A stretch of 64,000 nt of DNA. Origin: Oerskovia douganii. GTDB lineage: Bacteria > Actinomycetota > Actinomycetes > Actinomycetales > Cellulomonadaceae. The translations under genes were made by a program, and so were the position numbers. Location: the NCBI RefSeq assembly GCF_015142735.1, contig NZ_JACSPN010000007.1, positions 62,001-126,000 of the forward strand, given 5' to 3'. Below are positions 509-60,063 of this stretch, in pieces. The notes beneath the pieces were generated by a model. The model saw only the letters and a list, made by a program, of their open reading frames with translations. It did no database searches and was not told the DNA's origin. The stretch's first letter is position 1. The number at the start of each line of letters is the position of its first letter.

Positions 509-521
509 GTGTGTTTCTCCT

Positions 522-697
522 GGACGCCTGAGAGGTCAGCTGTCGGGTTCGGGTCGGAGAAAGCTCTACCCGGCCGTGCGGACCGAGGTCCGTCCGGCTT
601 CACCCCAAGGGCACCGTCTCCGGTGCCCACAAGAATGGGTCCCCCACCCCTGCCATGGGTGTAGTACGTGGCTCCGGAGGTGACAGGGTTCGGCGTC
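522..697 (-). promoter_or_regulatory. c-di-AMP riboswitch (ydaO-yuaA class)
   Basis: Read on the minus strand, the element opens with GGACGCCGAACCCTG and closes with GGCGTCC. The two ends pair perfectly as a 7-bp P1 (697-691 with 528-522). Class-typical segments occur in order: CCGGAGCCACGTA, GGGGGACCCATTCTTG, TTGGGGTGAAGCCGG, GGTAGAGCTTTCTCCGACC and CGAACCCGACAGCTGACCTC. P1 ends one or two bases before the AGGAG ribosome binding site of the downstream hydrolase gene, and no terminator hairpin separates them. Known members bind c-di-AMP and turn expression of wall-remodelling genes off. The position here suggests control of ribosome access, which is inference. Confidence 0.93.
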
Positions 698-25683: not shown

Positions 25684-28341
25684 CTAGACCTGCATGTCCA
25701 CGAAGCGCGCGTAGTGCCCTTGGAACGCGACGGTGATCGTGTCGGTCGGGCCGTTACGGTGCTTGGCGACGATCAGGTCGGCCTCACCTGCTCGCGGGGA
25801 CTCCTTCTCGTAGGCGTCCTCACGGTGCAGAAGGATGACCATGTCGGCATCCTGCTCGATGCTGTTGTGGACGGCGATACCGTTGGCGACGAAGTTGTGG
25901 GTCCCGACGACCGTCGCGTCGTAGACGGGCTTCTCGCCCTCGGGGGTGATGGAGACGACCTCGTCCCACAGCAGGTCGTTGACCGCCATGATCTCGAGCT
26001 CCTCGCTGTCGAGGACTTCCGCGATCTTCCCGAGCCGCTGCCGGGAAGGCGATGCCTTGAACATCGCGCTCCCGCTGAACTGCGTCCCCATGGCCTCGGC
26101 GAACTTGCGGTGCGACATGCCGCGTTCCTCGAGGAGCACGCGGACGTCGTCCCACACCTGGCGCGGCACGGTGTCGACGTTGGTGTTCGCGCGGGTGTCC
26201 CGGATGATCTCGAGGAGGCGCTCGGCGGCGGCACCGCGCTCGCCGTGCACCCCGATCTCCTGGAGGAACCGTCGCTGGTCGTCCACGCCGGAGATGTCGA
26301 GCGTGTACCCGGTCCGGTACGCGCCCTTGGCGGTTGCCGTCCGCAGGCGTGTCGAGATGCCGAAGCGCAGCAGCAGGCGGGACAGCCCGTCGACGAGCTG
26401 ACGCGAGGTCGAGGCGTAGTAGATGCGACCGCTGCGACCGTTGGCGTTGACGGTCACCGAGCCGTCGGTCGCCCAGATGTGCCGGATGAAGAGCGCGATC
26501 TGCTCCTTCGGCAGGTGGAACACGGTGGACGGCACGAACTTCTCGTGGCTCCGCGCCCCGAAGAGCCCCATGTCGTCGAGCCACTCCGCCACGGGGTTCC
26601 GCTTGCCCCGGGCGAGCCGGTACGGCGCGGGGAGCCGAAGCGTGGTGCAGCGGGCGACCGCGTACTCGTCGCGGATCGGGGTGATGCCGAAGGCACCCGC
26701 GGCCTCCGAGACGACCGCGAGGTTCTTCTCGTCGATCGACGCGTAGCGGATGGGCTGGCGCTTGACGAACGAGCCGTCGCCCAGCATGTGGGCGAGCATG
26801 ACGACCTTGCGGTCGTCCCACGCGACGCTCTGCTCCGGTCCGGGGACGTGGCGCGGCACGCCGAGGCGCGAGCCCACCTGCAGCTCGCCGAGCGGCGTCC
26901 AGCCCTCGTAGGTGAGGAACGGGTGGTTGGCGGTCGCGCTGATCTCCTTGCCGGAGGCCAGCTTGAGGCGGAACGTCTCGCGCGTCCCGGTGGGGAACAC
27001 GTGCGTGAGGTGGCGTCGCACGTACTGGAGGCGCTCGTTGAGCGCCCACACGGGCACGTCCTTGGCACCGAGGGCGTACAGCTCACCCATCGTGGTCTCG
27101 GCACCCGTGTCGGCTCGCAGGATCTTGGTGTCCTCGGTGAGGCAGCCCGACTCACGCAGGTCGCTCATCGCGGGCTTCTTGTCCGTGCGCTGCTCGGCGC
27201 CACGGTTCAGCTGCGAGATCGCGATGACCGGCACCTCGAGCTCCTTCGCGAGGAGCTTGAGCGCACGCGAGAACTCGGAGACCTCCTGCTGTCGGGACTC
27301 GACCCGCTTGCCCGACGTCATGAGCTGGAGGTAGTCGATCACGACGAGCTTGAGGTCGTGCTTCTGCTTGAGCCGGCGGCACTTGGCGCGGATCTCCATG
27401 AGCGACATGTTGGGCGAGTCGTCGATGAAGAGCGGCGCCTCGGAGATCTTGCCCATGGTGCCGGCGAGCTTCTGCCAGTCGTCCTCCCCCATGGAGCCGT
27501 TGCGCATCTTCTGCAGGTGGATGCGCGCCTCGGCAGCCAACAGACGCATCGTGATCTCGTTGCGGCTCATCTCGAGCGAGAACACGACGGACGTCATGTT
27601 ATGCTTTATGGAAGCACTCCTAACAATGTCGATTCCCAGCGTCGACTTGCCGATGGCCGGGCGCGCCGCGATCACGATCATCTGCCCGGGGTGCAGCCCG
27701 TTGGTCAGGCGGTCGAGGTCCGCGAACCCGGTCGGGACCCCCACCATGCCCTCGCCGCGGTGCCCGGCGGCCTCGATCTCGTCGACGGTCCCGCCGATGA
27801 CCTCGCCCAGGACGATGTAGTCCTCGGCGGTGCGTCGTTCGGTGACCGCGTAGACCTCGGCCTGCGCGTTGTTGACGACGTCGTCGACGTCACCCCCGTC
27901 GGTCGCGTACCCGAGCTGAACGATGCGCGTCCCGGCCTCGACGAGGCGGCGCAGCACGGCCCGCTCGCGCACGATGCGGGCGTAGTAGCCCGCGTTCGCG
28001 GCGGTGGGGACCATGGCCATGAGGTCGTGGATGTAGGGCGCTCCGCCGATCCGTCCCAGCTCGCCGCGGCGCGTGAGCTCGGCGACGACCGTGATGGCGT
28101 CGGCAGGCTCACCACGACCGTAGAGGTCGATGATGACGTCGTAGATCGACTCGTGCGCGGGCTTGTAGAAGTCGGTGCCGCGGATCTGCTCGATCACGTC
28201 CGCGATGGCGTCCTTGGACAGGAGCATGCCGCCGAGGACGCTCTGCTCGGCCGCGATGTCCTGCGGCGGGGTGCGGTCGAAGCCGGGACCACCGCTGCCT
28301 GCGGGCGGTCCGAAGCTCGACTCGAGCTCGTCGATCGACAT
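25684..28341 (-). CDS. dnaB: Replicative DNA helicase DnaB with inserted intein
   Basis: 885 codons: 458 extein residues (normal DnaB length) plus a 427-residue intein. The N-terminal domain (PPQDIAAEQSVLGGMLLSKD) and the RecA-like helicase domain (Walker A ARPAIGKST with Lys232; Walker B region VVIDYLQLMTS; AISQLNRGAEQR) are intact. DnaB is the hexameric helicase that unwinds DNA ahead of the replisome. The intein breaks RESG/SIEQDAD, the site used by the Synechocystis DnaB intein. Activity therefore requires splicing. Codons 236-249, just after Walker A, are strikingly AU-rich for this genome. Transcribed away from a cluster of DnaA boxes in the dnaB/MATE spacer. Confidence 0.97.
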   Translation of the reverse strand: MSIDELESSFGPPAGSGGPGFDRTPPQDIAAEQSVLGGMLLSKDAIADVIEQIRGTDFYKPAHESIYDVIIDLYGRGEPADAITVVAELTRRGELGRIGGAPYIHDLMAMVPTAANAGYYARIVRERAVLRRLVEAGTRIVQLGYATDGGDVDDVVNNAQAEVYAVTERRTAEDYIVLGEVIGGTVDEIEAAGHRGEGMVGVPTGFADLDRLTNGLHPGQMIVIAARPAIGKSTLGIDIVRSASIKHNMTSVVFSLEMSRNEITMRLLAAEARIHLQKMRNGSMGEDDWQKLAGTMGKISEAPLFIDDSPNMSLMEIRAKCRRLKQKHDLKLVVIDYLQLMTSGKRVESRQQEVSEFSRALKLLAKELEVPVIAISQLNRGAEQRTDKKPAMSDLRESGCLTEDTKILRADTGAETTMGELYALGAKDVPVWALNERLQYVRRHLTHVFPTGTRETFRLKLASGKEISATANHPFLTYEGWTPLGELQVGSRLGVPRHVPGPEQSVAWDDRKVVMLAHMLGDGSFVKRQPIRYASIDEKNLAVVSEAAGAFGITPIRDEYAVARCTTLRLPAPYRLARGKRNPVAEWLDDMGLFGARSHEKFVPSTVFHLPKEQIALFIRHIWATDGSVTVNANGRSGRIYYASTSRQLVDGLSRLLLRFGISTRLRTATAKGAYRTGYTLDISGVDDQRRFLQEIGVHGERGAAAERLLEIIRDTRANTNVDTVPRQVWDDVRVLLEERGMSHRKFAEAMGTQFSGSAMFKASPSRQRLGKIAEVLDSEELEIMAVNDLLWDEVVSITPEGEKPVYDATVVGTHNFVANGIAVHNSIEQDADMVILLHREDAYEKESPRAGEADLIVAKHRNGPTDTITVAFQGHYARFVDMQV
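25864..27144 (-). mobile_element. DnaB intein with LAGLIDADG homing endonuclease
   Basis: Residues 400-826 of the DnaB reading frame. The N-terminal Hint block starts CLTEDTKILRADTG with Cys1, and block B is ATANHPFLTYEGW. The C-terminal blocks are KPVYDATVVGTHNFVANG and the terminal VHN, followed by Ser of the C-extein; all splicing residues (Cys1, block-B His, His-Asn, Ser+1) are present. Between them lie two LAGLIDADG helices, VMLAHMLGDGSF and LFIRHIWATDGSV, each with its acidic residue, so the endonuclease may be active. A helix-turn-helix-like segment (WDDVRVLLEERGMSHRKFAE) precedes the C-terminal splicing part. Codon use is like the host, which argues against very recent arrival. Confidence 0.95.
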
Positions 28342-28536
28342 GCGGGCCCCTCACTCCCCCGGCGTGGCCGGGTATCGTCCTGCGTCGCACATCTGTTCTA
28401 CTCCGGCCCACCGACACGTCCTTGAGCCCGCGTCGTCGAGGGGTGTCGTGTGGTGCTGCACCGTCGACCGTCCGTAGGCCCGAGCATGCACGACTCAGCG
28501 ACAGTAGATCGCGCTTCCATCCCCCGCAAACGACCC

Positions 28537-28613
28537 TGTTCACAGAGGTGTGGACAGCCTGTGGACAGACCCCGCCAGCCTGTTCACAGCCATGTGGACA
28601 ACCATGTGGACAA
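28537..28613 (-). promoter_or_regulatory. DnaA-box cluster between dnaB and the MATE gene
   Basis: Two perfect TTGTCCACA boxes on the minus strand (28593-28601, 28605-28613), two CTGTCCACA (28549-28557, 28560-28568) and two CTGTGAACA (28537-28545, 28581-28589), all in the same direction. This is a short version of the array found in the dnaA-dnaN spacer, 33 kb away. It lies 200-270 bases upstream of the dnaB start and just upstream of the MATE start. Confidence 0.8.
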
Positions 28614-28663: not shown

Positions 28664-28670
28664 CAGGGGT

Positions 28671-30146
28671 GTGGACGAAAGAAATTCCGGCGACACGCCG
28701 CACGCACGCCAGCCAGCTCCCGGTCAGCCCTCCGACGCCGGTCGTTCACCCCGTTCATCCGAGGACCCCTCCCCGGTCACCGCCGGTGCCCCGCACCCGC
28801 AGCCGTCGTCCACAGGGAGCGCCCCGCCGAGCCGTCGCGTGATCGACCGGCAGATCCTGGCCCTCGCGGTCCCTGCCCTGGGCGCGCTCGTCGCGGAGCC
28901 GATCTTCGTGCTCGTGGACAGCGCCGTCGTCGGGCACCTGGGGACCGCCGAGCTCGCCGGGCTCTCCCTCGCGTCGACGGTCCTCCTGACCCTCGTCGGC
29001 CTGTGCGTGTTCCTCGCGTACGCGACGACCGCGGCCGTGGCCCGGCGCATCGGCGCCGGGCACCGGCGCGAGGCGCTCCAGTCCGGGATCGACGGGATGT
29101 GGCTCGCGCTCGGGCTGGGCCTCGTCCTCGCGGCGACCCTGTGGGTCGGTGGCGGCTGGGCGATCGGCGCGATGGGCGGCACGGGCGAGGTCGCGGAGCA
29201 CGCCCTGGTGTACCTGCGGTGGTCGGGTCTGGGTCTGCCCGGCATGCTCGTCGTCCTCGCCTCGACGGGGGTCCTGCGCGGCCTGCAGGACACGCGCACG
29301 CCCCTCTACGTCGCCGCGGGCGGAGCGACGTTCAACGCGGTCCTCAACGTCGTCCTCGTGTACGGCGTGGGCCTGGGCATCGCGGGCTCGGGCATCGGGA
29401 CCGCCGTCGCACAGCTCACGATGGGCGCGGTGCTCGCGGTCGTCGTCGTGCGCGGGGCCCGACGCGAGGGTGCCTCCCTGCGCCCCGCCGCGGGCGGCAT
29501 CTGGTCCAACGCGCGCGCCGGCGCACCGCTGTTCGTGCGCACGCTCTCGCTGCGCCTCGCGATCCTCCTGACGGTCTTCGTCGCGACGGGGCTCGGCGAG
29601 GTCACGCTCGCCGGCTACCAGGTCGTGGCGTCGGTGTGGGGGCTCGCGGCGTTCGCGCTCGACGCCCTCGCGATCGCCGCGCAGGCCCTCGTGGGTCACG
29701 GCCTGGGCGCCGGTGACCGGTCGCACGTGCGCTCGGTCCTGCGTCGCACGCTCGAGTGGGGCGTCGCGGCGGGCGCGCTCCTCGGCCTGGTCATGGCGGC
29801 GGGCGGCTGGTGGTTCGCGCTGTTCTTCACGTCCGACCCCGACGTCCGCACCGCCGTCGCGCTCGGGATGGCCGTGTGCGGCCTGCTGCTCCCCATGGCG
29901 GGGTGGGTCTTCGTCCTCGACGGCGTGCTGATCGGAGCCGGGGACGGCCGCTACCTCGCGTGGGCGGGCATGGTCACGTTCGTCGTGTACGTGCCGTTCG
30001 CGCTGGCGGTCCGCGCCCTCGCGCCCGACGGCGCCGCCGGCCTCGCGTGGTTGTGGGCGGCCTTCGCGGGGGTCTTCATGGCGGCGCGTGCCCTGACCAC
30101 GGGGCTCCGTGCGCGCAGCGACCGGTGGATGGTCACGGGCGCCTGA
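28671..30146 (+). CDS. MATE family efflux transporter
   Basis: 491 residues. After a Ser/Pro-rich cytoplasmic N-terminus (1-60) there are 12 predicted helices. The MATE repeat is seen in ALGALVAEPIFVLVDSAVVG and HLGTAELAGLSLAST, with the second half at FVATGLGEVTLAGYQVVASV. It resembles the DinF/NorM branch that exports cationic drugs with H+ or Na+. GTG 28671 was chosen because a -10 hexamer lies seven bases upstream; an ATG at 28641 is in frame but falls within the promoter region. A bidirectional terminator separates it from rplI. Confidence 0.9.
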   Translation: MDERNSGDTPHARQPAPGQPSDAGRSPRSSEDPSPVTAGAPHPQPSSTGSAPPSRRVIDRQILALAVPALGALVAEPIFVLVDSAVVGHLGTAELAGLSLASTVLLTLVGLCVFLAYATTAAVARRIGAGHRREALQSGIDGMWLALGLGLVLAATLWVGGGWAIGAMGGTGEVAEHALVYLRWSGLGLPGMLVVLASTGVLRGLQDTRTPLYVAAGGATFNAVLNVVLVYGVGLGIAGSGIGTAVAQLTMGAVLAVVVVRGARREGASLRPAAGGIWSNARAGAPLFVRTLSLRLAILLTVFVATGLGEVTLAGYQVVASVWGLAAFALDALAIAAQALVGHGLGAGDRSHVRSVLRRTLEWGVAAGALLGLVMAAGGWWFALFFTSDPDVRTAVALGMAVCGLLLPMAGWVFVLDGVLIGAGDGRYLAWAGMVTFVVYVPFALAVRALAPDGAAGLAWLWAAFAGVFMAARALTTGLRARSDRWMVTGA

Positions 30147-60042: not shown

Positions 60043-60063
60043 TGTGGAAAACTATGTGGATAA
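60043..60063 (-). promoter_or_regulatory. DnaA boxes at the dnaA promoter
   Basis: A perfect TTATCCACA (60055-60063, minus strand) next to TTTTCCACA (60043-60051). They lie 71-91 bases before the dnaA start, where DnaA is known to repress its own gene. Confidence 0.8.

What the first reader, a model, noticed from the sequence alone, without database searches (positions are those of the whole stretch)
28537..28613. Second DnaA-box array, 33 kb from oriC, at the dnaB/MATE spacer
Six DnaA-box-like nonamers, two perfect, all in one direction, occupy 77 bases upstream of dnaB. This could be a DnaA-titration site like datA, a DnaA-reactivating site, or a switch linking helicase expression to DnaA level. 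None is described for this position that I know of.
Basis: partly seen in the sequence, partly recalled or inferred. Interest (0 to 1): 0.68.

Follow-up and report, generated by a model that had tools for sequence, protein, structure and literature searches.

The report
DnaA-box array at helicase gene promoter
A row of binding sites for DnaA, the protein that starts chromosome replication, sits at fixed helical positions just upstream of the predicted promoter of the gene for the replicative helicase DnaB; it is conserved across the Actinomycetes class, and DnaA binding at this spot is already known from mycobacteria, so it most likely ties helicase supply to initiator activity.

Summary
The array is real. 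Of six nonamers at 28536-28613, four point toward dnaB (two TTGTCCACA, two CTGTCCACA). The other two are weak CTGTTCACA and point the opposite way, so 'all in one direction' is wrong. Closely spaced TGTGGACA direct repeats occur nowhere else in the 4.25-Mb genome. Upstream of dnaB, 59 of 61 Actinomycetes loci from 30 families carry such boxes (201 against 7.6 expected), as do all 80 named loci checked. The array stays with dnaB where MATE is not found, so it belongs to dnaB.

A sigma-70-type promoter motif (TTG-17/18-TAGCGT) lies just downstream. Box positions are locked to its -10 element (R=0.87; held-out 0.84) but not to the ATG (0.21; 0.04). All six window boxes fall at conserved positions.

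The best reading is that DnaA binds cooperatively on one helix face and regulates dnaB, probably activating it. It is not a second origin. Titration may be a side effect.

New here are class-wide conservation and promoter-phased geometry.

The parts
25684..28341 (-). dnaB, replicative helicase with an inserted intein (885 aa); the gene whose upstream region carries the array
   Evidence: Pfam DnaB N and C domains, intein splicing and LAGLIDADG domains
28605..28613 (-). DnaA box F1, TTGTCCACA (perfect), starts -107 from the predicted P1 -10 element
28593..28601 (-). DnaA box F2, TTGTCCACA (perfect), starts at -95
28580..28588 (+). weak reverse DnaA-box-like nonamer CTGTTCACA (2 mismatches), at -82, the position of the strong reverse box in many Arthrobacter-type loci
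28560..28568 (-). DnaA box F3, CTGTCCACA (1 mismatch), starts at -62
28549..28557 (-). DnaA box F4, CTGTCCACA (1 mismatch), starts at -51
28536..28544 (+). weak reverse nonamer CTGTTCACA, at -38, the position of a strong reverse box next to the -35 in several other families
28524..28529 (-). predicted -35 element of dnaB promoter P1, TTGCGG, spacer 17
   Evidence: two-block motif fitted over 61 loci; score 9.1, 8.8 with box-overlapping sites barred
28501..28506 (-). predicted -10 element of P1, TACTGT; transcription start inferred near 28494 (leader about 150 nt)
   Evidence: start site inferred
28395..28417 (-). predicted second promoter P2, GTGTCGGTG-N8-TAGAAC, resembling the mycobacterial DNA-damage promoter motif tTGTCRgtg-N8-TAnnnT
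   Evidence: motif as quoted in PMC5656591
28385..28400 (-). degenerate SOS/LexA-like box TAGAACAGATGTGCGA (3 mismatches to TCGAACRYRTGTTCGA), overlapping the P2 -10
28670..28678 (-). outlying single box TCGTCCACA (1 mismatch), 57 bp beyond the array, near the MATE gene start

Best explanation
The array is the DnaA-binding control region of the dnaB promoter. DnaA binds the four forward boxes (TTGTCCACA/CTGTCCACA), which lie 11-12 and 33 bp apart and so on one face of the helix, together with two weak reverse boxes. It forms a small oligomer that reaches to the -35 element of promoter P1. From there it contacts RNA polymerase and most likely raises dnaB transcription when active DnaA is plentiful, so that helicase supply follows initiator activity. 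Shown here: boxes, conservation, helical phasing, fixed distance to the promoter motif. Shown by others in mycobacteria: DnaA occupancy of the homologous place and lower dnaB mRNA in a mutant binding it less. Inferred: binding in this species, activation rather than repression, contact with polymerase, any cell-cycle timing.
For: Unique cluster in the genome. Conservation: all 80 named loci carry boxes; 59 of 61 class loci from 30 families have at least one box at -500..-80, 201 boxes against 7.6 (sd 2.9) in shuffles. Density is 13.6 and 8.2 per kb there against 0.16-0.26 further upstream. Unbiased k-mer and motif fits return the DnaA box as the strongest motif. The array stays with dnaB where no MATE match is found. 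Same-strand boxes repeat at a 10.8-bp period: R=0.735, 147 pairs; 0.754 with one genome per family. Promoter motif TTG-17/18-TAGCGT scores above all 10 shuffled sets. Boxes are phased to the -10 (R 0.876, n 68) and not to the ATG (0.208). On held-out loci R is 0.840 against 0.036; permutation maximum nR2 12.2, observed 69.9. The window's six boxes at -107, -95, -82r, -62, -51, -38r all match conserved positions. DnaA binds upstream of dnaB in Mtb (IDAP-seq) and M. smegmatis (ChIP-seq), and I282T DnaA binds it less and under-expresses dnaB (PMC7738170). The window's DnaA DNA-binding domain closely matches the Mtb one of PDB 3pvp.
Against: No binding or expression data exist for this species. 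Activation rests on one mycobacterial mutant allele plus box placement upstream of the -35. The P1 promoter is a motif prediction; the consensus sigma-70 scan finds no promoter here, and about a third of class loci give no convincing P1. The test whether box spelling at dnaB follows that at oriC was uninformative once GC was allowed for (partial correlation 0.16). Two class loci (L098, L138) have no box within one mismatch.
Confidence: 0.66

Rival explanations
1. DnaA binds the array and represses dnaB, as DnaA represses its own gene in several bacteria, so that helicase synthesis falls when free DnaA is high.
For: Same binding evidence; autoregulation of dnaA by DnaA is established in other bacteria (PMC8203912); a reverse box lies directly next to the -35.
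Against: No conserved box overlaps the -10 or start region; boxes lie upstream of the -35 as for activators; the mycobacterial mutant that binds less makes less dnaB mRNA, not more (PMC7738170).
Confidence: 0.15
2. The array is chiefly a DnaA titration or DnaA-inactivating/reactivating site (like datA, DARS, or the B. subtilis DnaA-box clusters) that happens to lie at dnaB.
For: High-affinity cluster near oriC that is duplicated early; strict boxes are rare in the genome (25 in all), so such a site would take a real share of DnaA.
Against: Titration does not need a fixed helical phase to a promoter, which is seen in training and held-out loci. The array stays with the dnaB promoter while leader length varies widely. 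A separate conserved cluster downstream of crgA, with another geometry, is the better candidate for such a role.
Confidence: 0.13
3. A protein other than DnaA is the main binder, for example a transcription factor with a TGTCCACA-like site.
For: The oriC-versus-dnaB spelling test was inconclusive; another unexplained element, GCAGGTCAG, is conserved in the same regions.
Against: The motif is the canonical actinobacterial DnaA box and DnaA itself binds the homologous site in two mycobacteria (PMC7738170).
Confidence: 0.04
4. A second or accessory replication origin.
For: It has an array of DnaA boxes next to the helicase gene.
Against: Lowest 50-bp GC is 54% against 42% in oriC; no DnaA-trio-like run by a simple pattern (which also missed oriC); the cumulative GC-skew minimum lies at 63.7 kb by oriC, with no switch at 28.5 kb.
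Confidence: 0.02

Closest known systems
DnaA-binding site upstream of dnaB (Rv0057 region) in M. tuberculosis and its M. smegmatis homologue (Hicks et al. 2020, PMC7738170)
   Same: Same gene, same place, same kind of box; one of five regions bound by DnaA in vitro (Mtb), with homologues bound in vivo (M. smegmatis).
   Different: Studied only in mycobacteria, and no box geometry is described in the text read; here four forward boxes plus two weak reverse ones in a Cellulomonas-like Micrococcales genome, with promoter phasing shown across the class.
DnaA regulation of dnaB in Caulobacter crescentus (Hottes et al. 2005, as cited in PMC8203912)
   Same: DnaA boxes upstream of the replicative helicase gene, which belongs to the DnaA regulon.
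   Different: Distant phylum; box and promoter arrangement not compared here.
datA, DARS1/2 of E. coli and the DnaA-box clusters of B. subtilis
   Same: Clusters of DnaA boxes outside oriC, some near it.
   Different: Those are described as controlling DnaA availability or nucleotide state; here the boxes are locked to a gene's promoter, and no IHF/Fis partner site or effect on DnaA was tested.

Membership tests
Actinobacterial dnaB-promoter DnaA site (as in Mtb/M. smegmatis) | Located in the spacer immediately upstream of dnaB | tested here: met
   Array 195-272 bp upstream of the dnaB ATG; 59 of 61 class loci alike
Actinobacterial dnaB-promoter DnaA site (as in Mtb/M. smegmatis) | High-affinity boxes TTGTCCACA in multiple copies above chance | tested here: met
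   Two perfect, two one-mismatch, two weaker; only such cluster of repeats in the genome
Actinobacterial dnaB-promoter DnaA site (as in Mtb/M. smegmatis) | DnaA occupancy | not testable with these tools
   Known for the homologous site in two mycobacteria (PMC7738170); not measured in this species
DnaA-regulated promoter (activator type) | Boxes at fixed distance and helical phase upstream of the -35 | tested here: met
   R 0.87 to the -10, 0.84 in held-out loci; not phased to the ATG
DnaA-regulated promoter (activator type) | Transcription changes with DnaA binding | not testable with these tools
   Only the mycobacterial I282T result bears on it (PMC7738170)
datA / DARS | Promotes ATP-DnaA hydrolysis, or ADP to ATP exchange, with IHF/Fis sites | not testable with these tools
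   Biochemical; no IHF or Fis site was sought and none could be assigned with confidence
Replication origin | AT-rich unwinding element and skew switch next to the boxes | tested here: not met
   Minimum 54% GC per 50 bp; skew minimum at 63.7 kb, by oriC

The most novel reading that the evidence does not exclude
Actinomycetes carry a class-wide, promoter-phased DnaA array at dnaB: boxes at fixed helical positions (about -117, -106, -95, -82 reverse, -72, -62, -51, -37 reverse from the -10). It couples helicase synthesis to active DnaA and works alongside a second class-wide DnaA cluster downstream of crgA, which would be the DnaA-modulating (datA/DARS-like) site. In several lineages the same dnaB control region also bears damage-response elements (a RecA-NDp/PafBC-like promoter and LexA boxes) and an unidentified element, GCAGGTCAG, that is also enriched at oriC.
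Probability: 0.4. Interest if true: 0.65.

Novelty: new member of a known kind. Interest (0 to 1): 0.5.

Why it matters
How actinobacteria match helicase supply to initiation is poorly known; mycobacteria have no identified homologues of the E. coli and B. subtilis helicase loaders and DnaA regulators (PMC5720831, abstract seen). A conserved, geometrically fixed DnaA array on the helicase promoter turns one mycobacterial ChIP peak into a class-wide, testable regulatory rule: shifting or flipping boxes by half a turn should break it. It also separates promoter-type DnaA sites (dnaB) from possible DnaA-modulating sites (crgA).

Tried and rejected
Chance: rejected. Array belonging to MATE: rejected, boxes persist where no MATE match is found, e.g. 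Arthrobacter-type loci. Second origin: rejected. Covariation of box spelling (A or G at position 3) between oriC and dnaB as a test that DnaA is the binder: rho 0.39, but partial correlation 0.16 after GC, so uninformative. A first two-block motif fit converged on the DnaA boxes themselves rather than on a promoter; the promoter was then taken from promoter-like seeds and checked against shuffles and held-out loci. GCAGGTCAG as an origin-specific element: 3-24 copies per genome of an extended form, so not origin-specific (114 copies of the 9-mer in the own genome). Rfam gave only a c-di-AMP riboswitch elsewhere. The consensus promoter scanner found nothing in the spacer. No structure prediction was run; it would not bear on the question.

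Full report
WHAT IS THERE. The window (C67:62001-126000 of a 4.25-Mb assembly in 69 contigs) comes from a Cellulomonas/Sanguibacter-like member of the Micrococcales, judging by its nearest named dnaB relatives. dnaB lies at 25684-28341 on the minus strand and carries an intein. Upstream are a divergent MATE gene and then rplI and ssb. The array at 28536-28613 holds four nonamers that point toward dnaB, in order 28605 and 28593 (TTGTCCACA), 28560 and 28549 (CTGTCCACA). It also holds two weaker nonamers, CTGTTCACA, at 28580 and 28536 on the other strand. The region is a 25-bp unit repeated at 44 bp, four helical turns, plus one more copy 12 bp on. TTGTCCACA is the listed high-affinity box for M. 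tuberculosis and S. coelicolor (PMC4285127, Table 1). The window's DnaA DNA-binding domain matches the solved M. tuberculosis one (3pvp, E 6.6e-34; that this chain is the M. tuberculosis protein is from general knowledge).

CHANCE. Only 25 strict TTRTCCACA sites exist in the genome, and TGTGGACA-N1-25-TGTGGACA occurs only in this spacer. The array is the strongest 100-bp cluster of the window, above the oriC pieces.

CONSERVATION. Eighty named dnaB loci, mostly Micrococcales, all have boxes in the 700 bp upstream of dnaB. Sixty further Actinomycetes genomes plus the window, from 30 families, give 201 boxes at -500..-80 against 7.6 (sd 2.9) in dinucleotide shuffles, and 59 of 61 loci have at least one. 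In other classes of the phylum 15 of 40 loci have boxes (31 against 2.8). A MATE match is found in only part of these lineages, while the boxes persist without it. An unbiased 7-/8-mer count puts TCCACAG, TGTCCAC, TATCCAC and TTGTCCA first.

GEOMETRY. Same-strand boxes lie at 11-12, 21-22, 32-34, 43-45, 53-57 and 64-67 bp, a 10.8-bp period (R=0.735, 147 pairs; R=0.754 with one genome per family). A two-block motif search started from generic promoter seeds converged on TTG-(17/18)-TAGCGT, with a log-likelihood of 23.9 against -1 to -36 in ten shuffled sets. Relative to the start of that -10, forward boxes begin at about -117, -106, -95, -72, -62, -51 and -40, and reverse boxes at about -82 and -37. 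The phase to the -10 is tight (R=0.876), while the phase to the ATG is not (0.208). The same holds for held-out named loci when sites overlapping a box are barred: R=0.840 against 0.036, nR2 69.9 against a permutation maximum of 12.2. The -10 lies anywhere from 43 to 299 bp before the ATG in those loci, yet the boxes keep their distance to it. In the window the positions are -107, -95, -82 (reverse, weak), -62, -51 and -38 (reverse, weak), with -35 TTGCGG at 28524-28529 and -10 TACTGT at 28501-28506. All six nonamers therefore sit at conserved places.

MECHANISM. Boxes on one face of the helix, ending next to the -35 and leaving the -10 and start free, are the layout of an activator site (general knowledge of promoter architecture). 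Hicks et al. 2020 (PMC7738170) found five DnaA-bound regions in M. tuberculosis by IDAP-seq and the homologous five in M. smegmatis by ChIP-seq, among them the region upstream of dnaB. Their I282T DnaA mutant binds less there and uniquely under-expresses dnaB. Together these favour DnaA-dependent activation. Binding in this species, the sign of regulation and cell-cycle timing remain inferred.

OTHER INPUTS IN THE SAME SPACER. Nearer dnaB the window has GTGTCGGTG-N8-TAGAAC (28395-28417). It resembles the mycobacterial RecA-independent damage promoter motif tTGTCRgtg-N8-TAnnnT (PMC5656591). Such a motif occurs in 19 of 61 class loci and 42 of 80 named loci, against about 2% of control windows. 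LexA-like boxes are found in 15 of 61 class loci against 6 of 793 control windows; the window's is degenerate. In M. tuberculosis, dnaB is overexpressed after mitomycin C, partly PafBC-dependent, and is listed among SOS-box genes (PMC8151990).

ALTERNATIVES. There is no AT-rich element (54% GC minimum per 50 bp against 42% in oriC), and the skew minimum is at 63.7 kb by oriC, so a second origin is unlikely. Titration cannot be excluded as a by-product but does not explain promoter phasing. The oriC-versus-dnaB spelling test was uninformative after GC correction.

WIDER PICTURE. Four of the five mycobacterial DnaA regions have counterparts here: oriC, the boxes before dnaA (60043-60063), dnaB, and a pair of TTATCCACA boxes between a rhomboid gene and crgA (L181:12354-12406). 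The crgA one is class-wide too: 37 of 40 genomes, 101 boxes against 3.3 expected. Hicks et al. found no obvious correspondence for it in other species.

LIMITS.

Noticed in passing
L181:12354-12406 (own genome C67:138354-138406), and L222-L261: A second conserved non-oriC DnaA-box cluster lies just downstream of crgA, at the position of the Mtb Rv0010c-Rv0011c DnaA site: 37 of 40 Actinomycetes genomes, 101 boxes against 3.3 expected, often two forward boxes then one reverse. Hicks et al. saw no obvious counterpart of it outside mycobacteria.
   Followed up: partly
upstream of dnaB arrays (e.g. L083, L099, L121, L135) and oriC regions L182-L221: An unidentified element GCAGGTCAG is enriched upstream of the dnaB arrays (25 of 61 loci, 1.3 expected), often at about -142, -152, -163 or -174 from the P1 -10, and also at oriC (16 of 40, 2.0 expected). 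It occurs elsewhere in genomes too, so its meaning is open.
   Followed up: partly
window 28385-28417: Downstream of P1 lies a RecA-NDp/PafBC-like promoter motif overlapping a degenerate LexA-like box; both are enriched at dnaB across the class, suggesting damage control of helicase expression.
   Followed up: partly
window 60043-60063: Two DnaA boxes (TTTTCCACA, TTATCCACA) 12 bp apart directly upstream of dnaA, matching the known rpmH-dnaA site.
   Followed up: no
window 25684-28341: DnaB carries an intein with a LAGLIDADG domain (splicing domain match at residues 410-826).
   Followed up: no
window 510-676: c-di-AMP riboswitch (ydaO/yuaA leader) on the minus strand, 56.7 bits.
   Followed up: no
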